A DNA stretch of 64,000 bases, taken from the NCBI RefSeq assembly GCF_016808095.1, contig NC_068976.1, positions 18,756,371-18,820,370 of the forward strand, in the 5' to 3' direction. This stretch comes from Vigna angularis. Lineage: Eukaryota > Streptophyta > Magnoliopsida > Fabales > Fabaceae. The first letter of the stretch is position 1. The number at the start of each line of letters is the position of its first letter. The notes below the pieces were generated by a model, which was not told the DNA's origin, made no database searches, and saw only the letters and a program-made list of their open reading frames with translations. A program made the translations under genes and the position numbers. Positions 29,399-59,564 of the stretch are shown here, one piece after another.

Positions 29399-32254
29399 TT
29401 TTTTTTTTGTGTGTTCAAAGAACAACCTTTCCCGGTGTGCTTCGAAGCAATGGAAAACTGGAATCAGATTTCGTGTTACATTTATGCCTACCGTGAAAAT
29501 AATAACAATTTTCCTTTACTTGCATTCATAAAACTAGAGAAGAGTTACTTTTATCAGTTAGAGTACCCTTCTACTCTATTGGAAACAACCAGTTGCATGA
29601 TTTTTGGTTGCAGGATAAGCCTTGCACCTTCTCAAATCTCAATTAGGGTTTGAATTTTTTAATAATCGGTGATTAGTGGTTGGTTTAATATTTTATTTTA
29701 TAATCTAAAAATGGGGTCAAAAAAGCAGCTATTGCATAACGCCAAAAGGCACATGGAGCCCTATTCTTGTCGTGACGACACTCTATTCCTTTTGTTTCTA
29801 TCTGGGAAGTTCACACCTATTATAATTTTAGTTTTCTTTCCCAATAAATAAAATAGTATCATATGCTGTACTATATACGTTATGATAATTACACACACAC
29901 ACAACAAAGTTGGGACTTGGGAGATGGGGCATGCATATTGTTTAGTTGTACTTATAAACTATGACCCCTATATATAAAGGTGGATCTATTTGGATAAATA
30001 TATGTACGAACGCCTGTTATATAAACAGAGTTTCATAATTAAAAACAAATGAAGCTATGAAAGTTTGTTTTTTTCTTTTTAAAGTGTTTGCTGTGAACCC
30101 TTGTTTATGTGATGTTTTCTTTAACTGCTAAACAACAATAGTTTGTCCAAGAATTTGTTACTCAAGTTTTTACCTGGGTAGGATTGGACTGGTCTTTGTG
30201 GGCGTGAATAGAACTAGAGATTCGGTGTTTGGAACAAGACAGGCACTTGGGCATACCTTTCTTGGAAATGAAAGTGAAATGTTTGTGGGAAAGCACGCTT
30301 TTCATACCATGTTTACATTTTACACACACATGCCTACACGAACAGGAACTAAGATATTGACTAGTTTCGTTATCTAGCCGTGTACCTGCAATGGACCACA
30401 TAATAACACTGTATCTTCTTCTTTTCGCTTGCTACTTCCCCACTCTTTTTTCTCTCTAGGGCATGTTAATTAGCCTTACCCTTTTGAACTGCGTGATATA
30501 TATCTTATGGTGGTGGATGATGGCGAAGTATGTATGAAATGTAGGTGGCAGTGTATGTATGGATATTTCATACCATACGTAAAGTGTGCTATATGGCAGA
30601 GGCATGATTATATAAGATTCTGAAGTATCTAACTGAAAATAAGTACACTGACATGATAATAATGAAAATTAAATGGGTGTAATGTTGTTAATTTGAAGCT
30701 GATAATGTGGTCTTTCTCTAGTCCCGAGTATCTGTTTTTCTGCTACGCGATGTCATTGCTATGGTTTGCTTGGTTCCTGACGCGAATGATGGTTACCTCT
30801 CTGCTCCCTCCCAGCTAGCTGAGCTGAGTTTTAGCTTAGCTTAGCATAGCTACCTGCTTCTGCCATCTTCAATGTTTCTCTCTCCAGTCTTTCATCCATT
30901 GATACCTACTTATAGTTAACGAAAAGCAGGTAGATATTATGAAAAAAAGAATTTCTTGGCTTTCTATTTTTGTGGAAGAGTTCTAGGGACTTGCTCAAAT
31001 TATCAATGCAGCTTTCGTGAAACGGAAAGCTATTTTAACTTAGAGCTAGGTTGGTTGGTTCATATGGAGTTGGGTTGACAACGGTGATGATGATTGAAAA
31101 TTTGTGCATTGGCCATGCAGGTTTGTTCCACGTGGCGGGAGGTGTCGCGCTCGGATCTGCTGTGGGAGCACCTCACGAGGCGCATCTGGCGAAGGACGTT
31201 CCGAGTGAGGGACACGTGGCACACCGAGTACATCAACTGGCATCGGACGGCTACGAACTTCGAGACTGGAAGGCTGTCGTTTATGACTCCGCGCTTTGAT
31301 CCTTCGGAGCATCGCCGGGGCTTGATCTGCCGCTGCCTCTCCCTTTCCGACACCCGCCTCGCGTGCGGCTTCGTAGACGGCACCGTGCGGGTCTTCGACC
31401 TCGAAACCTACGACCACGTCAGCACCTACCTGTCCGACCACGGCCACCTCTTCGGGCCCTACTCGCGCTCTGTCTCGGGAATCATTATCACCGACTCCGA
31501 CATCACCTTCGCCAGGCTGGACGGGGACATCTATGTGGACGCTATCAACGTGCATGGGCAGAGCCAAGCGCGGCGGGTCGTGTCGGGGTTCGTGATGAAC
31601 AGCGGGGTCTTGGTCGGGTTCGCGGGAACGCGGCGGCGGTGGGTGGGTCTGTTCGCGGGGATAGCGGAAGGTGCGTTCCAGGTTTGGAACGCGGAGAGCG
31701 GGGAGCGCCTGTTCCTTGGGGGGTCGTTAACGGATCCGGAAACGGTTATGGGGTGGCACATGCTGACGGAGTTGGTTGACCCGGTGGGGCGGGTGCGCGT
31801 GACGGAGGATGAGTTCGTGGTGGCATGCACTGGTTTGAGGCTGATCTGTTTCAACGCGTGGAACCCGGAGGTTCTTCTGCGGGACGAGATGTCGGCGTCG
31901 GGGTTCGTGGTGAGTTCGATGGACGTGAGTTCGGAGGCGTTTGTGGTGGTGGAGCGTGGTGGGGTGGGAACGGTTTGGCGCGTGGGGACGATGGAGTTGA
32001 TGAGCCGGTTTGTGTTGAGGAGTTCGTGGGTTCGTGGGTTGTGGGGTTGCATGAACCTTGGGTACGTGGTAACCTATTCTCCTAACCCTACGCCATTCTT
32101 GAGGGTTTGGAACATTGAGCAAGAAGAAGGACGGCTGTGTGTGAGAGTGTTCCTGCGAGCAGGAGAGGTGAATAGCATGGTGGGTGATGACAGACACGTG
32201 GCTATCTCTTCCAACAACATTAACCTATTGGATTTTGGTGTACAGAATCCTTAG
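28076..32254 (+). CDS. SAP: STERILE APETALA-like F-box protein
   Basis: Arabidopsis SAP and its Medicago relatives MINI ORGAN1/SMALL LEAF AND BUSHY1 are F-box subunits of SCF ubiquitin ligases. They promote organ growth by marking the PEAPOD/BIG SEEDS repressors for degradation. Two coding exons, 28076-28342 and 31121-32254, join in phase 0 with GT-AG ends to give 466 residues, against about 446 in Arabidopsis. Residues 2-18 are almost all serine. The F-box-like domain (about 54-112, from VLPEPFLEALANQVAI to VSRSDLLWEHL) is split by the intron directly after Arg89. The rest forms a WD40-like propeller: examples are ACGFVDGTVRVFD, GGSLTDPETVMGWH near the middle and VGDDRHVAISS near the end. 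The ATG at 28076 was chosen because the protein then begins MSSTT as in the family; an in-frame ATG 30 codons upstream would add a hydrophobic segment unlike SAP. Exon 2 is very GC-rich for this window. Confidence 0.94.
28343..31120 (+). other. Single intron of SAP
   Basis: This 2,778-bp intron has donor CGG|GTATTT and acceptor CATGCAG|GTTTG and interrupts the F-box. It contains a long TA run at 29360-29397 and a less AT-rich stretch at about 30720-30900. I saw no other gene inside it. An apparent extension of exon 2 upstream to an ATG at 31094 is intronic. Confidence 0.85.
29360..29397. repeat. (TA)n microsatellite in the SAP intron
   Basis: An uninterrupted TA run of about nineteen units, followed by a T-rich stretch. 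Confidence 0.9.
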
Positions 32255-40200: not shown

Positions 40201-43200
40201 TTAGTTCTAAACTCTTCTTTGATGAAAAAATTATGCATTACAATGCATAAATTTCCAAAGCTGAAATGCAGCTTATGAGTAAGTTAAAAAGTTGAAAACA
40301 CGGTCCACATTGTGGACTTTTCCACAACTAAAAGTAAAATGGAAAATGGAGAACATCCTTTATATAAGTGGAATACAACAGTGGAAGAAGATGCTAACTC
40401 ACAATACGACAATGTTTGTTTTAGCAGAGGTGAAAAAGTTGGCACAAAATATGGGGACATCATATTCTGCTTCAGGAAAGACAGTAAAATCAAAAACCTG
40501 CATAAGTTCAAGAAAAAAAGAGAGAGGCAGTGAGCATATTGTAAAACAATTTCCAGACAGGACAAAATACAGAACACTTCAGCAATTCATATGTCTTTTT
40601 TTCTTGTATCATTGAAAACAGGTTTGCACTAGGCTGAAGTTCAAGTTCACATGAAGATGGAAAAAAGTTTGGACTAGGATGAAATCCAACACATTGAAGT
40701 CAAATGAGGAGGATCCAGAGATATATAATAACACAATTCAGAAAATAAATGCCCACCTCTGTTTTCCCAATGAAGAAATTACTACTTTAAAATAACAGCA
40801 ACACGATTAGGAATGGGATTGTTACTATAGTAATTCATCTAGCAAGAAATTCAAAAAACAAGAACAGACATTAACTTTGAAGTCTGATTAGTAAAGAGGA
40901 TATATTGTGAAGTGACATCCGCAAGTTCTGAAATGATTAGTTACGTCACAGACATTTTAAATTAAAATAATGGACAAGGGATTGTCAGTTTTGTGGAAAC
41001 TATGGTATTTCAAGAATCGAGACTGGCAGAAATAAGTTCATAAAAGATCAAATTTTGAAATTGTTATGGCTAAAATAAATTACCAGGTACTACAAAGGCA
41101 TATTTTTTTAGGACAGTAGTAGAAACCAACCATACATCAATTTGTATTAGAATAACATAGTGCAGGGAGAAACTGATTTCATTATGAATGAGGGATTACA
41201 AAATTGAATTTACTGCAGTAAGCTAAGCTTATGTATAGCTACAGAGATGAGCTAATTATGCTAGTAAACCAACTAACTATAATAAAAGAGCTAATTGTAG
41301 TAGGGATAACAAACTGTAACTAATGGAGTTGAGTTAAGATAACAAACTATAACAAACTGAGAGTATGTTACATAGATCTTAGCAATGAAAGAGATACAAT
41401 ATAGTACTGAATATATACCCCACTACACCCACGCAAACTCAGGAAGGGTGGTGAGAACGAGAATCTAGAACTTTGAGCTTTAACCAGAGTCAGGAATCGA
41501 TTAGGAGAGAAGATTTTGGTTAGAACATCAACAACTTGACATGAATGATCTAGATTTTGCTAGGTAACAACCTTTTCTCAAACAAAGAAACTATTTGTTT
41601 CCATATGCTTGGTGCATGAATGAAGAGAATTGTGGGCTAAGGCTATAGAGCTCATGTTATCACAAAGTGTGTGGAATTCCAAGTTAAGATCATAAAGTTT
41701 GAATCAAAACAATTTCAGTTGTGGTGTATGCCATATTGCAATACTCTGCTTCTGTTCTGGAGAGAGCTTTCATGTTGGTATGCAAGTGGAAGTATGCATG
41801 AACCTTGTTCCAAAGCTAAAACAATGACTTGCACCAGAAAACATGAGTGAGCATTTCTCTAGACATGGAAGATTGGAGCCACAAGAGGAGAAGTTGATTT
41901 TTTGACACCAAGAAGATAATTATTTGAGTCAAGCTTTTCAGAGATTGAGTGAGAAAAGTTAGTTGTCACCATTGTTGGACAAGGAGAAGAAAACTAGGGT
42001 TAGAGGCATGGATTGTTTCATGCTTAACAAAGAGAGGGAAACTGATTTCACTATGAATGAGGGACTACAAATTTGATTTTACTATAGTAAGCTTCAGCTT
42101 TTTATAACTATACAAAGATGAACTAGTTATCCTAGTAAACTAACTATAGTAGATAAGCTAATTGTAGTAAGGACAACAAACTGTTACTAACAGAATTTAG
42201 TTAAGCTAACAAACATAATAAATTGACATTCGACAGGGATTGAAAAAACACCTGCATTGTTTCTGTCTCAATGATCAAACTTCGTAAAAGCCTAATTTTG
42301 GTAGCTTCAAATGATAGCATACTAAGCATTCCTTTACCATCCTTAGAATTCATGGAACTGAACTTTTCCTAGCAAAAAAACATACACAAAATGTACGGTG
42401 AAGATCTGTGGACACAAATAATGGTGGAGAACAAAGCAGAGGAATGCAGAACAACAAGGGACAAAAGCCACAACTGGGATTTTGGAAAATTTTTTAGTTC
42501 GGTTAAACTAAATTTAATACCAAAAGAAAAATATAATATGAAATGGAAAATTAAATAACAAAAGAACAAAAAAACAAGAGTTAATGACTTCTTCATTATT
42601 TAATTATCAGAAGTGCAAAGTTGATGATTGGAACAATGGACCACATCCTCAAAAACTCCTTTTCATTTAAATTTTCCTTCAAAATTAAATGGAAGATGTT
42701 TTCTAGATATTATTGACCAAATCAAAGTGATTGTTTACTTTATTTATGTACAGTGCTTACAAAATCAATGAGTGTGTTTGAAACTTGTTGTAGATGTTGG
42801 CAAACACGTTCATGTATTGTTGGGTTTATCAGTTACCAATTAAGAAATCTGCAGCACTTGCAATCTATCACTGTCAAACATGGAATTGTGTACTGAGTTC
42901 TGCAATAAAAAGAAATTTAATACAGTAAATTTATTGAAGTCGAGCAGTTTTAAAGGTTTCAATTTTTACTGTTAAAAGTTAACGCTCTCCTATTCTATAA
43001 AGCAGTTTTCAGCATCATAACCATTGGGAAGGCAATGAAGAGTTCACACGACAACCTAATAAAAACCTAATCAAGCATGAATGATCCCAAAAAAAAAATC
43101 CTAGAGATTAGAAAATAAGAGGGGGGATAATGTTAGACAATTAAAGGTTTACGTGAGAAGGGGTAAAAAAAAAAGGGATGAAATAAGTAGTGGGAGACGG

Positions 43201-46200
43201 TGGTTAGTTGGTTAGAAGAGAGAGGGAATATAAATAACAAACAGATTAAGGAGAGGGGGCATCGAATATTATTTGGGAATTGAGACTGGACCATTGTGGC
43301 CAGTGGAGGAAGGGAGGCTTCCTTGGGGGAGAGATAGACAACTGTATTCATCTTTTCTACACATTACAGAGGAAATAGAAATATAGATACATGCATATTT
43401 CTTTATACTGTTGAGTGTGTGTTTTTTCTTGCTACTGTTCGGCTCCTTATATAAAGGAACCTAACAGATTTGGTCCGACCTGCCGGATCAGTTTCGGAGA
43501 GGAGAAGAAGGAGAGGTAGCGAAGAAGCATGGAGGGGCGAATGGGGGCGATGGAGGCGACAATGGAGGAACTGAAGGCAGAGGTGAGGGCGATGACTCTC
43601 GCTTTTCAACGAACCTCAGGTAGACGTTCCAGGAACCATGATCGGAGCTCCGCAGGGAGCCGCGACTCCGTCAATGCTGACTGTGAACGACGATCACCAG
43701 AGAGTTCGGAGGAGGAGTCGGAAGAGGATGGAGGAGATGTGCAACGAAGTTGGATGAAACGTGTGGAACTTCCAACGTTCGAAGGAACGGACCCCATGGG
43801 CTGGATAGCGAAGGCCGAAAAATTCTTTGATATCCAGAACGTGACAGAGAGGGAGAAAATGAAGCTGGTATATATCTGTATGGAAGGAGGCGCTAGTTAT
43901 TGGTTCCGTTTTTGGCGGAAGAAGACTAGACATCCAACTTGGAGCATGTTCACTGCCGCTCTAACACGGAGGTTTGGAGGCTTAAACAGGGGCTCTGTTT
44001 ATGAAAAATTGGCTGCCGTGCGACAAAGGGGAAATGTCGACGAATATATACAGGAGTTTGAAGTATTGGTGGCGCAAGCAGCCGGAGTGAATGAGGAACA
44101 ACTTTTGGGATACTTCTTCGCTGGGCTACAAGAAGGATTAAGAAATCTGGTGAGGCCGCATGACCCACGCGATCTGTTGACGGCAATGGAGCGAGCACGC
44201 GACGTCGAGCAAGCGGGTTCGGTATCGCGAGGTAATAGCGGAACGAGAGGAAAAGGAGGGGTGACCTGGGGAAAGTATTCCTCGAGCTCAGGTACTGTCG
44301 CGAGGACGGAGACCTATCGCGGCACGTCAGAGGGATCGGTAAACGTCGGCGGGGTCGGCGGTGGATCGGGAACGAAGAAGGAAGGCGTTTCTAGCAATGT
44401 AACCGCCCGAGCTGGTAGTAGCGGAGGAGGGAATACTCAAGGAAGAGGAGTAAGAATGTTGCCTTATCCCGAATATATAAAAAGGCGTGAAGAAGGGCGT
44501 TGTTTCCAGTGCGGTGGCCCATACAGCCCGGGCCATCGGTGTGCTGAAAGGAGTATGAGAATGATGATTTTGGCGGAAGAAGGTGAAGAAGAAGGAGTCG
44601 AAGAGAAGATCGAAATGGTCGAAATGGAGGAACCGGTGATGGAACACACGGCGATGGAATTGTCAGGGTTGTCTGCCGGAGGACTCACCCAATCAAATAC
44701 CATGAAGATGCAAGGATGGATGAAGGGGAGGAGAAGTCTGGTGTTAGTAGACAGCGGAGCTAGTCATAGCTTTATATCCACCAGATTGGTGAAAGAATTG
44801 GGTCTGGAAAGCATTGACACCCATCCCTATAAAGTGTGCTTAGGTGATGGACAAAAGAAAATAACCAGTGGATATTGCACAGGGGTTACTGTGAAATTGG
44901 ATGGGCTGGAAGTTAGAGATAAATTATATTTATTTGAGTTAGGCGGTGTGGATGTGATATTAGGAATCACTTGGTTAGCTTCCCTAGGAGAAATTAAAGT
45001 GGATTGGGGACACCTAATTATGAAGGTGGAGGTTGAAGGGAAAGTAGTGGAGATAAAAGGAGATCCCACTTTAACACGTCGAATGGTGACACCCGAAGTC
45101 CTCTTAAAAGAAAAGGAGATAGAAGTCATGACTCTCGTGTGGAGCTTAAGTCAAGCAGAAGCGGTGGAGGGAGATGGGAAAACCGGGAGATGGACACCGA
45201 CTCAAGAGGCAGGGCTGAAGCAGATTTTGTCAGACTTCGAAGGAGTATTTCGAGAACCTCAGGGGCTGCCACCTGAGAGGAAAGTTGATCATCGAATACC
45301 CTTGAAGGAAGGAACAGAGCCCATAAGTGTCAGGCCATACCGCTACCCACACCTCATGAAAACAGAGATAGAGAGACAAGTTGAGGAAATGTTGAAGCTC
45401 GGTGTGATTCGTCCCAGCAATAGTCCATATTCAAGCCCAGTAATATTAGTGAAAAAAAAAGATGGGAGCTGGAGATTTTGTGTAGATTACAGGGCACTGA
45501 ATAGAGTCACAGTGGCGGATAAATACCCAATACCAGTTATAGAAGAATTGCTGGATGAGCTTCAAGGGGCAAGGTATTTTTCTAAAGTTGATTTAAGGGC
45601 TGGATATCATCAGATCAGGATGAAAAATGAAGATATTCCTAAGACAGCCTTTAGAACGCATCAAGGGCACTACGAGTTTCTCGTTATGCCTTTTGGGTTG
45701 ACAAACGCCCCTGCCACGTTCCAAGATATGATGAATTCTGTCCTCAGGCCATTTTTGAGGAGGTGCGTGTTAGTTTTTTTTGATGATATACTAATATACA
45801 GTAAATCTTGGGATGAACATATGCAACATTTACAGCAAGTTCTGGAGGTGTTAGCACAGCAGAAATTATTTGCTAATAGAAACAAATGCGAATTTGGGAG
45901 AGAACAAATTCGTTATTTGGGGCATAAAATTTCAAAGGCGGGAGTTGAGATGGATGAGGAGAAGGTTTCTGCGGTGACAGCATGGCCCGAACCAAAGAGT
46001 ATCAGAGAGTTGAGAGGGTTCTTAGGTCTGACTGGATACTACAGGAGATTCATCAGAGCTTATGGGAAGATCGCTCAACCTCTCACCAACCTGCTTAAGA
46101 AAGGGAAGTTTGACTGGTCTCTTGCAGGGGCAGAGGCAATGCAGAAACTCAAAACAGCAGTCACCACGGCTCCAGTATTAGCTTTACCGGATTTCTCTCA

Positions 46201-49180
46201 AGCCTTTCAGGTGGAGTGCGATGCGTCGGGCACAGGTTTAGGAGCAGTTTTGTCTCAAAATAGAAAACCAATAGCTTATTTTAGCAAAGCTCTTTCCGAA
46301 GTGTCACTCACCAAATCTGTTTATGAGAAAGAATTGATGGCTTTGGTGTTAGCCATCCAACACTGGCGACCCTACCTTTTGGGCCAAAGGTTCGTTGTTT
46401 ATACTGACCAGAGGAGCTTGAGATATTTGTTGGAGCAACGTATTACTACTCAAAATCAGCAGAATTGGTTGGCTAAATTACTAGGGTATGAATTTGATAT
46501 TGTTTATAGGACTGGGGCATCCAATAAGGTGGCGGATGGGCTCTCAAGAAAAGGGGAGGAATTGGAGGAGGGAGAAAAAGTACTGCACATGATATCTAGG
46601 CCCTATTGGTCCAATTTCCAGGAAATTATGGAAGAGGTTGAGAAGGATGCAACTCTAAAGAAAGTGATGGACGATATAAGTGCAGATCCGAATTCACATC
46701 CGGCGTATACCCTGGAACATGGGAGATTACATTACAAGGGACGGTTGGTTTTGTCAGCACAATCTTCCTGGATACCAAAATTATTAACAGAATTCCATAA
46801 CACGGTCACAGGAGGGCATTCAGGAGTCTATAGAACATATAGAAGGGTGGCACAATCCCTGTATTGGACAGGAATGAAGAAGACAATCACCGACTATGTG
46901 GCTGGCTGCCTAGTATGCCAACAGCATAAGTACTTGGCATCGTCACCCAAAGGTCTCTTGCAACCTTTACCCATTCCTAAAGCAGTATGGGAGGACATCA
47001 GTATGGATTTTGTGGTAAAATTACCTAAATCGCAAGGATTTGACACTATACTTGTGGTGGTGGACAGACTCAGCAAATATGGGCATTTTATTCCCATTAA
47101 GCATCCGTATACAGCAAGGTCTATAGCTGCAGTATTTGTGAAAGAGGTGATTAGATTACATGGTATACCTATGACCATTGTTAGTGACAGGGACTCAACA
47201 TTTTTGAGCATCTTTTGGCAGGAGATATTTAAATTGCAAGGCACACAGCTTAAGATGAGTACTGCCTACCATCCAGAGACAGATGGACAAACGGAAGTAT
47301 TAAACAGGGTACTCGAAACATACTTACGCTGTTTTAGCTCAGAACAACCCAAAAGTTGGAGTTTGGTGTTACCTTGGGCAGAATATTGGTACAATACCAG
47401 TTATCAAGGGGCATCTAAGTGCACACCCTTTGAAACTGTTTATGGCAGACTTCCTCCCACACTCACACGATTCATCCTTGGGGAAACAATGGTAGAAGCA
47501 GTAGCCCAAGACTTGCAGACACGTGATGAGGCTTTACAGCAACTGAAATATCATCTGGCCAGGGCCCAAGACCAGATGACACACTTTGCCAATAAGAAGA
47601 GGGTGGAGGCCAAAATCAAGGTAGGGGATTGGGTATTTTTAAAAATCAGACCTCATAGGCAAACATCTATGCCAACAAGACTCCATCCAAAGCTGTCTGC
47701 ACGATATTATGGTCCTTTCCGCGTGGAGCAGCAAATAGGCCCAGTCGCCTTTCAGCTACAACTACCAGAAACAGCAAAAATACATCCTATTTTCCATGTG
47801 TCCCAGTTGAAGTTAGCTATTGGAACACATTCAGTTGAAGGCACCCTCCCAACTGAATTGCAGGATGACAACCCACGCTATACCCCAGTGAAGGTGTTAC
47901 AGCGAAGGAACCAACAAAATCAGGGAAAGGAGATACCCCAAGTTCTCATACAGTGGCAGGAGAATGATATTGAAGGTGCTACTTGGGAGGAGGAGCACTA
48001 TATCAAACAGCAGTTTCCTAACTTCAACCTTGAGGACAAGGTTGATAATGAGGGGGAGGGTAATGTTAGACAATTAAAGGTTTACGTGAGAAGGGGTAAA
48101 AAAAAAAGGGATGAAATAAGTAGTGGGAGACGGTGGTTAGTTGGTTAGAAGAGAGAGGGAATATAAATAACAAACAGATTAAGGAGAGGGGGCATCGAAT
48201 ATTATTTGGGAATTGAGACTGGACCATTGTGGCCAGTGGAGGAAGGGAGGCTTCCTTGGGGGAGAGATAGACAACTGTATTCATCTTTTCTACACATTAC
48301 AGAGGAAATAGAAATATAGATACATGCATATTTCTTTATACTGTTGAGTGTGTGTTTTTTCTTGCTACTGTTCGGCTCCTTATATAAAGGAACCTAACAG
48401 ATAATCAAACAAGAATTCATATAAAATAAAAGATGGGCTAAAATTACAAATCACCACATCCTGAAGCATGCTCATTAACCCTATTTCAGCTGCACAATGC
48501 CATCCAATGTATGGTAACAGCATTTTGAGCCACAACCCACAGAACTTGTTTTAATAGAGCACTTCACTAAAATTCTTTGTCTTCTTCACCCTTATATTGG
48601 TTATGTTATGTACAAATGCATCACTAAGGCAGCATTTCGTATATGTTCAAAACAGAATGGAATGTTCAGTGCTCCTTGATTACACACATTTCATTGAATC
48701 AAAATGTCATTTCTTTGCTTCAACTCACAGTCCTGTTAAAGTGAATCCATATGCAATGTTTTATCCACTCCAACACATCTAACAAACCGTTCCTAAATTC
48801 GGTTTCAAGTTTACTGCAACTGGACAATTAGAAAAACCTATCTATTTCCACCTCAACTAAAAGTTTAATAAACACTACAAACTACAAAATCCACACTAAC
48901 CCTAACAAACCATTCTAATTTCAACACCATCTCCACACACCAAAAAAAAAATAAAGAAAAAAAAAACCTGCAAAGGTGAAGAGTTCAAGTGAGAGTGGCG
49001 TCTGGTTTCATCCAAAGCAAACTCAACAAACTTGTGATAAGATACCGAAAAACTTTGTATGCAAGTACTTCTCCTTCTCCCCCAGTCACGTGTGAAAGTG
49101 GTTACGGTTTTTAATGGAGGAAGAAGCGAACGTTGCAGGGAAAAGGTTGAAGATGGTGAACAACCAATGCTAAATTCCAT
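37223..49180 (-). CDS. HY2: Phytochromobilin synthase (phytochromobilin:ferredoxin oxidoreductase)
   Basis: This plastid ferredoxin-dependent bilin reductase converts biliverdin IX-alpha to phytochromobilin, the chromophore of plant phytochromes. Eight coding exons read on the minus strand: 49180-48968, 42368-42252, 40497-40403, 38713-38620, 38323-38192, 38055-37951, 37550-37500 and 37426-37223. All boundaries are GT-AG and the joined frame gives 336 residues (Arabidopsis about 329). Residues 1 to about 45 form a Ser/Arg-rich transit peptide. Family blocks follow: KIRLLRSL and ETETMQVFDF across exons 2-3, PIFCANFFTS, LDLNPLHD (142-149, with a conserved acidic residue), PWGGKLTSES, FFSPIVIW, EAQHRYLTWR, FLFNGVDELGSKTF and RPWNARGEFIG. 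An in-frame TGA directly precedes the ATG, which fixes the start. The last ten residues extend past the family's usual FIG end. Intron 1 (6.6 kb) holds a whole retrotransposon and intron 2 a decayed copia relic. Intron 3 (1,689 bp) holds nothing recognisable. Confidence 0.95.
41161..42228 (-). mobile_element. Decayed Ty1/copia retrotransposon relic in HY2 intron 2
   Basis: Two diverged direct copies of an LTR-like sequence lie at about 41161-41343 and 42033-42211. They share words such as AACTGATTTCA, ATGAATGAGGGA, CTAATTGTAGTA and AGTTAAG. Between them, on the minus strand, are remains of the copia RNase H end. No target duplication could be established. The element is shortened and full of indels and stops. 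It is oriented like HY2, and its edge lies only 23 bp from the HY2 exon 2 splice donor. Confidence 0.65.
41490..41770 (-). pseudogene. Ty1/copia RNase H remnant
   Basis: On the minus strand, broken frames read RTEAEYCNMAYTTTEIV, then LGIPHTLCDNMSSIALAHN, then TKHMETNSFFVREKV and a stop, then DVLTKIFSPNRF. These match, in order, the RNase H end of plant copia polyproteins (SAEAEYRAL..., CDN.SAI.LA.N, TKHIEID.HFVREKV, LADIFTK). Frame changes and stops show it is dead. Confidence 0.7.
43126..43130. repeat. Target-site duplication GATAA, left copy
   Basis: The sequence directly before the 5' LTR, GATAA, recurs exactly at 48400-48404 directly after the 3' LTR. Confidence 0.9.
43131..43466 (+). 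repeat. 5' LTR of the chromovirus
   Basis: The LTR begins TGTTAGACAATTAAAGG and ends GGAACCTAACA. A TATAAATAA box at 43229-43237 is the likely promoter element, placing the RNA start roughly near 43260. A second TATATAAA lies too close to the LTR end to serve a normal U3-R-U5 layout. It is identical to 48064-48399. Confidence 0.93.
43468..43490 (+). other. Probable primer-binding site region
   Basis: A few bases after the 5' LTR comes TGGTCCGACCTGCC. A primer-binding site is expected here and normally begins TGG, the complement of a tRNA CCA end. I could not assign the matching tRNA. Confidence 0.35.
43529..48148 (+). CDS. Gag-pol polyprotein of the chromovirus
   Basis: One open frame of 1,539 codons encodes all the proteins of the retroelement. 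In order: a gag domain (about 85-210); a CCHC-type zinc knuckle (325-338, CFQCGGPYSPGHRC); an aspartic protease with active-site DSG at 408-410; reverse transcriptase with catalytic Asp688 in FSKVDLRAGY and the Asp752-Asp753 pair in VFFDDIL; RNase H with Asp898, Glu935 and Asp960; integrase with His1090/His1097 and Cys1127/Cys1130 in its zinc domain and a D-D-35-E triad at Asp1160, Asp1220 and Glu1256; and a chromodomain-like C-terminus (about 1454-1500). Every catalytic residue is present and no stop or frameshift interrupts it, so it may still be functional. The last 27 residues are encoded within the 3' LTR. The start is the first ATG after the 5' LTR, 62 bases downstream. Confidence 0.95.
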   Translation: MEGRMGAMEATMEELKAEVRAMTLAFQRTSGRRSRNHDRSSAGSRDSVNADCERRSPESSEEESEEDGGDVQRSWMKRVELPTFEGTDPMGWIAKAEKFFDIQNVTEREKMKLVYICMEGGASYWFRFWRKKTRHPTWSMFTAALTRRFGGLNRGSVYEKLAAVRQRGNVDEYIQEFEVLVAQAAGVNEEQLLGYFFAGLQEGLRNLVRPHDPRDLLTAMERARDVEQAGSVSRGNSGTRGKGGVTWGKYSSSSGTVARTETYRGTSEGSVNVGGVGGGSGTKKEGVSSNVTARAGSSGGGNTQGRGVRMLPYPEYIKRREEGRCFQCGGPYSPGHRCAERSMRMMILAEEGEEEGVEEKIEMVEMEEPVMEHTAMELSGLSAGGLTQSNTMKMQGWMKGRRSLVLVDSGASHSFISTRLVKELGLESIDTHPYKVCLGDGQKKITSGYCTGVTVKLDGLEVRDKLYLFELGGVDVILGITWLASLGEIKVDWGHLIMKVEVEGKVVEIKGDPTLTRRMVTPEVLLKEKEIEVMTLVWSLSQAEAVEGDGKTGRWTPTQEAGLKQILSDFEGVFREPQGLPPERKVDHRIPLKEGTEPISVRPYRYPHLMKTEIERQVEEMLKLGVIRPSNSPYSSPVILVKKKDGSWRFCVDYRALNRVTVADKYPIPVIEELLDELQGARYFSKVDLRAGYHQIRMKNEDIPKTAFRTHQGHYEFLVMPFGLTNAPATFQDMMNSVLRPFLRRCVLVFFDDILIYSKSWDEHMQHLQQVLEVLAQQKLFANRNKCEFGREQIRYLGHKISKAGVEMDEEKVSAVTAWPEPKSIRELRGFLGLTGYYRRFIRAYGKIAQPLTNLLKKGKFDWSLAGAEAMQKLKTAVTTAPVLALPDFSQAFQVECDASGTGLGAVLSQNRKPIAYFSKALSEVSLTKSVYEKELMALVLAIQHWRPYLLGQRFVVYTDQRSLRYLLEQRITTQNQQNWLAKLLGYEFDIVYRTGASNKVADGLSRKGEELEEGEKVLHMISRPYWSNFQEIMEEVEKDATLKKVMDDISADPNSHPAYTLEHGRLHYKGRLVLSAQSSWIPKLLTEFHNTVTGGHSGVYRTYRRVAQSLYWTGMKKTITDYVAGCLVCQQHKYLASSPKGLLQPLPIPKAVWEDISMDFVVKLPKSQGFDTILVVVDRLSKYGHFIPIKHPYTARSIAAVFVKEVIRLHGIPMTIVSDRDSTFLSIFWQEIFKLQGTQLKMSTAYHPETDGQTEVLNRVLETYLRCFSSEQPKSWSLVLPWAEYWYNTSYQGASKCTPFETVYGRLPPTLTRFILGETMVEAVAQDLQTRDEALQQLKYHLARAQDQMTHFANKKRVEAKIKVGDWVFLKIRPHRQTSMPTRLHPKLSARYYGPFRVEQQIGPVAFQLQLPETAKIHPIFHVSQLKLAIGTHSVEGTLPTELQDDNPRYTPVKVLQRRNQQNQGKEIPQVLIQWQENDIEGATWEEEHYIKQQFPNFNLEDKVDNEGEGNVRQLKVYVRRGKKKRDEISSGRRWLVG
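48050..48060 (+). other. Polypurine tract
   Basis: GAGGGGGAGGG lies three bases before the 3' LTR, where plus-strand DNA synthesis would be primed. It is also translated, as the gag-pol frame runs straight through it. Confidence 0.75.
48064..48399 (+). repeat. 3' LTR of the chromovirus
   Basis: Identical to the 5' LTR, including the run of ten A residues. Its first 85 bases also encode the end of the gag-pol frame, whose stop lies at 48146-48148. Confidence 0.93.
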
Positions 49181-59096: not shown

Positions 59097-59564
59097 ATGG
59101 TGCTGGGAAGAATGGTGCAGGAGCAGCACCGGGGAGAGCGAGAGAAACGGCCTAAGTTCTTCATAAACGACAACATAGACATTCTTCGGGAAATCCTGAA
59201 ACGACTCGACGGACCCTCGCTGGGTGTGGCGGCGTGCGTGTGTCGTCTGTGGTGCAGCCTCACGCGCAACGACGACTCTCTCTGGGAGCATCTCTGCTTC
59301 CGCCACGTCTCCACGGCGTCGGTGCGCGCGGTGGTGGTGGCCTTGGGCGGCTACAAGCGTCTCTACATGGTGTGCGTGCGACCGGTGCTGAGTCGACTCG
59401 GAGAGTCGGAGCGAGTTAGGAAGCGAGTGTGGACTCGGCATGAGGTGCAGCTCTCGCTCTCGCTCTTCTGCATTGACAGCTACGAGAGGCTCGGAAGTGG
59501 AAGGATCGCCAGCGACGCATCCGCATCGTCCCTCATGTTCCTCTGCAACACCATCAACGTCTGA
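59097..59564 (+). CDS. SNE: SNEEZY (SLEEPY2)-like F-box protein, gibberellin signalling
   Basis: Arabidopsis SNEEZY is a close relative of SLEEPY1. Such F-box proteins carry DELLA repressors to SCF ubiquitin ligase so that gibberellin can act. The single intronless frame gives 155 residues, matching the family's small size (about 157 in Arabidopsis). Residues 22-70 hold the F-box, with family words INDNIDILREILKRLDG, LGVAACVCRLW and DDSLWEHLCFRHVS. The remainder matches the SNE C-terminal part: VVVALGGYKRLYMVCVRPVL, WTRHEVQLSLSLFCI and SYERL. The ATG at 59097 is chosen because it gives the longest frame. A second ATG five codons later is also possible, and neither alters the F-box. The coding region is much more GC-rich than its flanks. 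A CT-rich leader (about 58986-59060) precedes it. Confidence 0.92.
   Translation: MVLGRMVQEQHRGEREKRPKFFINDNIDILREILKRLDGPSLGVAACVCRLWCSLTRNDDSLWEHLCFRHVSTASVRAVVVALGGYKRLYMVCVRPVLSRLGESERVRKRVWTRHEVQLSLSLFCIDSYERLGSGRIASDASASSLMFLCNTINV

What the first reader, a model, noticed from the sequence alone, without database searches (positions are those of the whole stretch)
43126..48404. Very young, apparently intact chromovirus inside intron 1 of HY2
The two 336-bp LTRs read as identical, the target duplication is perfect, and the 1,539-codon gag-pol frame keeps every catalytic residue. An insertion this fresh may be polymorphic within the species and possibly still mobile. It lengthens HY2 intron 1 from about 1.3 to 6.6 kb and lies antisense to HY2, so its LTR promoter would drive transcription against the gene. 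This could alter phytochrome chromophore supply through splicing or small-RNA effects.
Basis: partly seen in the sequence, partly recalled or inferred. Interest (0 to 1): 0.75.

Follow-up and report, generated by a model that had tools for sequence, protein, structure and literature searches.

The report
Young retrotransposon in adzuki-bean HY2 intron
A recently inserted, apparently intact jumping element sits backwards in the first intron of an adzuki-bean light-sensing gene; this is an ordinary kind of event in bean genomes, with one less usual detail (its copying-start site matches a tyrosine tRNA) and no evidence yet that it changes the gene.

Summary
An LTR retrotransposon lies at 43131-48399 (+), 5,269 bp, with two LTRs identical over 336/336 bp, a perfect 5-bp target duplication (GATAA) and one open 1,539-codon gag-pol frame. 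It sits antisense in intron 1 of HY2, which is 6,599 bp with it and 1,325 bp without it.

It belongs to a small family. Of 13 copies compared, 3 have identical LTRs and 3 keep a full-length frame. dN/dS against the other full-frame close copy is 0.07-0.12. LTR identity only bounds the age at roughly 0.3-0.7 My.

New here: the primer-binding site matches 18 nt of the host tRNA-Tyr(GTA) 3' end exactly. Beet Reina elements use tRNA-Met. Otherwise the anatomy is Reina-like, but no tree was run.

Polymorphism and any effect on HY2 are untested. The annotated exon-2-skipping isoform also occurs in mungbean and soybean, so the element need not explain it. In those two species intronic LTR elements go with higher or unchanged expression. 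Ordinary event; low interest.

The parts
43126..43130 (.). target-site duplication GATAA, left copy
43131..43466 (+). 5' LTR, 336 bp, TG...CA, TATA-like TATAAA at 43229, A10 run at 43165-43174
43471..43488 (+). primer-binding site, 18 nt exactly complementary to the 3' end (with CCA) of host tRNA-Tyr(GTA)
43529..48148 (+). single gag-pol open frame, 1,539 aa: gag, PR, RT, RNase H, integrase, weak chromodomain; last 85 nt lie in the 3' LTR
47879..48022 (+). chromodomain-like stretch at the integrase C-terminus, upstream of the polypurine tract
48050..48060 (+). polypurine tract GAGGGGGAGGG, inside the ORF
48064..48399 (+). 3' LTR, identical to the 5' LTR; a promoter in it would point at HY2 exon 1, 569 bp away, on the antisense strand
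48400..48404 (.). target-site duplication GATAA, right copy
42369..48967 (-). HY2 intron 1 with the insertion (6,599 bp; 1,325 bp without element and one TSD)
48968..49180 (-). HY2 exon 1 coding part, 213 bp
42252..42368 (-). HY2 exon 2, 117 bp, skipped in one annotated isoform

Best explanation
A Reina-like chromovirus (Ty3/gypsy LTR retrotransposon) of a small, recently active adzuki-bean family inserted into HY2 intron 1 within about the last few hundred thousand years. Shown: the LTRs, TSD, open frame, the tRNA-Tyr(GTA) match of the primer-binding site, mostly low dN/dS against close copies, and two other copies with identical LTRs. Inferred: it moves by the usual cycle, with LTR transcription, tRNA-Tyr-primed reverse transcription and integrase insertion with a 5-bp stagger. 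Inferred: the host splices it out with intron 1, and HY2 is little affected.
For: Identical LTRs and perfect TSD; both LTRs share an A10 run where the 12 other compared copies have runs of 4-8. Domain order gag-RT-RH-INT. Of 13 copies compared, 3 have 0 LTR differences (window, L010, L014) and 3 have a full-length frame (window, L014, L022). dN/dS of the window copy against L014 is 0.12, 0.07 and 0.11 in three pieces. PBS: 18-nt exact match to tRNA-Tyr(GTA); 11 of 13 copies show the same 18 nt, L012 has one substitution, and L016 has one in the 14 nt that the call printed. Size, LTR length and chromodomain upstream of the PPT match beet Reina elements Bingo1-7, and an ORF running into the 3' LTR matches five of those seven (PMC3605345, sections 5 and 7). 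An annotated V. angularis HY2 protein from a contig of exactly this length (37,163,307) joins exon 1 to exon 3 across the insertion.
Against: The chromodomain falls below Pfam's cut-off. Clade placement rests on anatomy, with no tree against named references. The window copy has no near-identical donor among the copies read: nearest LTR 2.1% away. LTR identity could be kept by gene conversion. dN/dS is higher in some pairs, up to 0.45 for RT-RH against L011, where the DNA alignment has two gaps; against the subfamily (L022, L025) dS is saturated in 4 of 6 pieces and gave no ratio. No RNA evidence was seen, and the read support of the annotated isoform could not be checked.
Confidence: 0.85

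Rival explanations
1. The element is older than it looks: LTR-LTR gene conversion erased differences.
For: No near-identical sibling among the copies read; the nearest LTR is 2.1% away.
Against: The frame is fully open; the A10 run is the same length in both LTRs but unlike the other 12 compared copies; in the same family L012 (7/333), L015 (10/329) and L016 (9/308) do show LTR differences, together with broken frames.
Confidence: 0.07
2. The insertion alters HY2: antisense RNA from the 3' LTR over exon 1, intronic heterochromatin, or premature polyadenylation lowers phytochromobilin supply.
For: The 3' LTR end is 569 bp from exon 1 and points antisense; two AATAAA motifs on the HY2-sense strand of the element; HY2 matched a single locus.
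Against: The exon-2-skipping isoform is shared with mungbean and soybean; intronic LTR elements in mungbean and soybean go with higher or unchanged expression (PMC10373317, passages). No transcript data here.
Confidence: 0.1
3. Assembly artefact: a misplaced or collapsed copy.
For: Identical LTRs can collapse in short-read assemblies (general knowledge).
Against: Perfect TSD; the LTRs differ from those of the other copies read, including the A10 run. No empty site from another genome was available for comparison.
Confidence: 0.02

Closest known systems
Reina-clade chromoviruses, e.g. Bingo1-7 of Beta vulgaris (PMC3605345)
   Same: 5.3-5.8 kb length, 0.3-0.5 kb LTRs, 5-bp TSD, single gag-pol frame, chromodomain upstream of the PPT; ORF runs into the 3' LTR in Bingo1-4 and 7 (not 5 and 6)
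   Different: PBS fits tRNA-Tyr(GTA), not initiator tRNA-Met; PBS starts 4 nt after the LTR instead of up to 3
CRM-clade centromeric chromoviruses
   Same: ORF extends into the 3' LTR
   Different: here the chromodomain lies upstream of the PPT, not downstream (rule), and is a weak Pfam Chromo match
Sibling copies in the same genome (L009-L016; subfamily L022-L025)
   Same: same layout and, in 10 of these 12, the same 18-nt PBS; internal pieces 95-99% identical (L009-L016, where present) or 72-78% (L022-L025)
   Different: 10 of these 12 lack a full-length open frame; the window copy has an A10 run and a C-terminal tail that reads on from it

Membership tests
Ty3/gypsy LTR retrotransposon | LTRs with TG..CA, 5-bp TSD, PBS, PPT | tested here: met
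Ty3/gypsy LTR retrotransposon | integrase downstream of RT/RNase H in the polyprotein | tested here: met
chromovirus | chromodomain at the integrase C-terminus | tested here: inconclusive
   Pfam Chromo E 3.2e-4, 21.0 bits, below cut-off 25.1; right place; PDB chromodomain matches only at E 0.17 or worse; several listed relatives carry precomputed PF00385
Reina clade | element about 5.2-5.8 kb with LTRs of about 0.3-0.5 kb | tested here: met
   5,269 bp, LTR 336 bp against Table 1 of PMC3605345
Reina clade | chromodomain upstream of the PPT (CRM: downstream) | tested here: met
   chromodomain match ends at 48022, PPT at 48050; rule. Shared with Tekay and Galadriel, so it excludes CRM only
Reina clade | group II chromodomain (first and usually third cage aromatic lost) | tested here: inconclusive
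   W kept and third position N; a Y stands near the first position; rule from passages of PMC3350952
Reina clade | tRNA-Met primer (usual in chromoviruses, not defining) | tested here: not met
   PBS fits tRNA-Tyr(GTA), 18 nt; usual primer
Reina clade | RT/INT phylogeny with named Reina references | not tested
   no named reference sequences were at hand
HY2 / phytochromobilin synthase (host gene) | Fe_bilin_red domain and similarity to the solved phytochromobilin synthase | tested here: met
   exons 1-3: PF05996 58.4 bits over a 31 cut-off; 6kmd E 1.1e-33

The most novel reading that the evidence does not exclude
The insertion is polymorphic in adzuki bean, and antisense transcription from its 3' LTR, or silencing spread from it, tunes the single HY2 gene, giving a natural light-sensing allele.
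Probability: 0.06. Interest if true: 0.6.

Novelty: new member of a known kind. Interest (0 to 1): 0.27.

Why it matters
It is a clean, young insertion in a photoreceptor-chromophore gene found at one locus, usable as a presence/absence marker in adzuki. The tRNA-Tyr primer-binding site, shared by two subfamilies only 72-78% identical, suggests an old primer switch within Reina-like elements, which the usual tRNA-Met description of chromoviruses does not cover.

Tried and rejected
Self-priming (Tf1/Sushi type) was tested by looking in the LTR for a stretch complementary to the first 40 nt after it: none of 7 nt or more. The idea that the exon-2-skipping HY2 isoform is caused by the element was rejected because V. 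radiata P0007 and Glycine P0024, P0026 and P0027 lack the same exon. CRM membership was rejected on chromodomain position. ARAGORN without introns called none of the 10 fetched tRNA loci tRNA-Tyr (4 empty, 1 Leu, 5 undetermined); with introns allowed 9 of 10 are. A tree against named clade references was not run. Two genome searches did not complete: an internal piece of the element, to find more copies, and the primer-site pattern, to count such elements (and later). Insertion-site preference of siblings was not tested. Papers: searches (15 of 37 listed) gave no title or abstract start that pairs a tRNA-Tyr 3'-end PBS with a plant Ty3 element; passages of PMC10886601 describe tRNA-Tyr anticodon-loop priming in fungal elements. 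Supplements could not be read, so this does not show it is unpublished.

Full report
What is there. The element spans 43131-48399 on the + strand (5,269 bp). Its LTRs (43131-43466 and 48064-48399) are identical over 336 of 336 bases and it is bounded by a perfect GATAA duplication. One frame, 43529-48148, encodes 1,539 aa and runs 85 nt into the 3' LTR. Three pieces of it match Pfam gag, RT, RNase H, integrase zinc-binding, core and SH3 domains. The C-terminal piece adds a chromodomain below the curated cut-off (21.0 against 25.1 bits). By eye the frame shows the protease DSGA, RT FFDD, the RNase H acidic residues, the integrase HHCC and D,D35E motifs (motif names recalled).

Host gene and species. 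HY2 lies on the minus strand. Exon 1 is 49180-48968 and exon 2 is 42368-42252; intron 1 (42369-48967) is 6,599 bp, or 1,325 bp without the element and one duplication. Exons 1-3 match phytochromobilin synthase 6kmd (E 1.1e-33). I read eight exons by eye and joined them to 327 aa. By score the first hit is a Phaseolus vulgaris protein (93% identical over 66%) and the second is P0003, Vigna angularis; aligned, P0003 is 100% identical over the shared columns and lacks exon 2. Its contig length, 37,163,307, equals that of the window's contig C7. HY2 matches fall only at this locus (6 of 6 matches; 2 of 2).

Family and age. The LTR search listed 41 places in the genome, with 40 of 227 first-look candidates scored, so counts are lower bounds. 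I fetched 17 regions. With the window copy, 13 copies had both LTRs resolved. L017-L020 had a single LTR: L017 and L018 are solo LTRs with a perfect 5-bp duplication, L019 has an imperfect one, and L020 is a 5' LTR followed by the PBS. L021 was dropped because no duplication was found. Eight further listed places of the distant group were not fetched. In L022-L025 the LTR start was set by looking for the duplication, so that feature is there by construction. LTR differences per copy: window 0/336, L009 2/331, L010 0/330, L011 3/330, L012 7/333, L013 1/312, L014 0/332, L015 10/329, L016 9/308, L022 1/350, L023 8/348, L024 6/347, L025 4/348 (substitutions; small gaps not counted). A full-length frame is open in 3 of 13 (window, L014, L022). 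With 0 of 336 differences the 95% upper age is 343 ky at 1.3e-8 and 637-731 ky at 7e-9 to 6.1e-9 per site per year (1.3e-8 is the rate used in PMC10373317; the slower rates are recalled). That bounds the age but does not show polymorphism. The window LTR is 2.1% from its nearest relative among the copies read, L009, so no recent donor was found there. The 12 other compared copies have A-runs of 4-8 where the window copy has 10 in both LTRs; the last residues of its frame differ from those of L009, L010 and L014 from that point on, so the exact length of 1,539 seems private to this copy.

Selection. Between the window copy and L014, dN/dS is 0.12, 0.07 and 0.11 for gag-PR, RT-RH and INT pieces; against L010 0.19, 0.11 and 0.14; against L011 0.21, 0.45 and 0.12; against L013 0.20, 0.16 and 0.18. 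Against the subfamily copies L022 and L025 only gag-PR gave a ratio (0.06 and 0.11); the other pieces are saturated. The lineage appears to have replicated with working proteins. In L014, L010 and L011, dS is about twice as high in gag-PR as in INT; L013 does not show this.

Primer. Four bases after the 5' LTR the element reads TGGTCCGACCTGCCGGAT. A pattern built on the tRNA-Tyr 3' end found 13 places in the genome, all with the same matched sequence. Of the 10 loci fetched, ARAGORN without introns called none tRNA-Tyr; with introns allowed it tRNA-Tyr(GTA) and 1 tRNA-Asn. The PBS is complementary to the last 18 nt including CCA. The same 18 nt stand in 11 of the 13 resolved copies; L012 has one substitution and L016 one in the 14 nt printed. 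No self-priming complement of 7 nt or more was found. Beet chromoviruses use tRNA-Met (PMC3605345 section 5), and a survey reports tRNA-Met in most chromoviruses (PMC6317226, passages).

Clade. Length, LTR length and chromodomain upstream of the PPT fit Reina as described for beet; the ORF runs into the 3' LTR as in Bingo1-4 and 7, not 5 and 6. Group II status of the chromodomain is unclear: W kept, third aromatic replaced by N, a Y near the first position (rule in passages of PMC3350952). The protein search scored 7,939 candidates (a capped set) and 7,934 passed; the 120 listed are mainly flowering-plant or unnamed records, with one green alga, and the best hit is a V. angularis protein (84% over 90%) whose C-terminal stretch resembles the L022 subfamily. 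No tree with named clade references was run.

Effect on HY2. Nothing here shows one. The 3' LTR points antisense at exon 1 from 569 bp and the element carries two AATAAA motifs on the HY2 strand, so interference is possible. Against it, the skipped-exon-2 isoform is also annotated in mungbean and soybean, and intronic LTR elements in those species go with higher or unchanged expression (PMC10373317, passages). That paper's abstract also says that more than half of the intact LTR elements inserted within the last 0.5 My in the legumes it studied, which makes this insertion ordinary.

Noticed in passing
window 43471-43488; L009-L016, L022-L025: Primer-binding site matches tRNA-Tyr(GTA) and is shared by two subfamilies only 72-78% identical internally.
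   Followed up: partly
window 43165-43174 and the matching place in the 3' LTR: A10 run in both LTRs where the 12 other compared copies have 4-8; the last gag-pol residues differ from that point on.
   Followed up: yes
L010, L011, L014 against the window copy: Synonymous divergence is about twice as high in gag-PR as in integrase, as if the copies were mosaics; L013 does not show it.
   Followed up: no
window 42252-42368 (HY2 exon 2): In-frame 117-bp exon missing from annotated isoforms of V. angularis, V. radiata and Glycine.
   Followed up: partly
window 31094-32254 (+): Open frame of 386 aa without a stop, probably a host gene; open frames also on the other strand.
   Followed up: no
window 59097-59564 (+): Open frame of 155 aa that looks by eye like the start of an F-box gene.
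   Followed up: no
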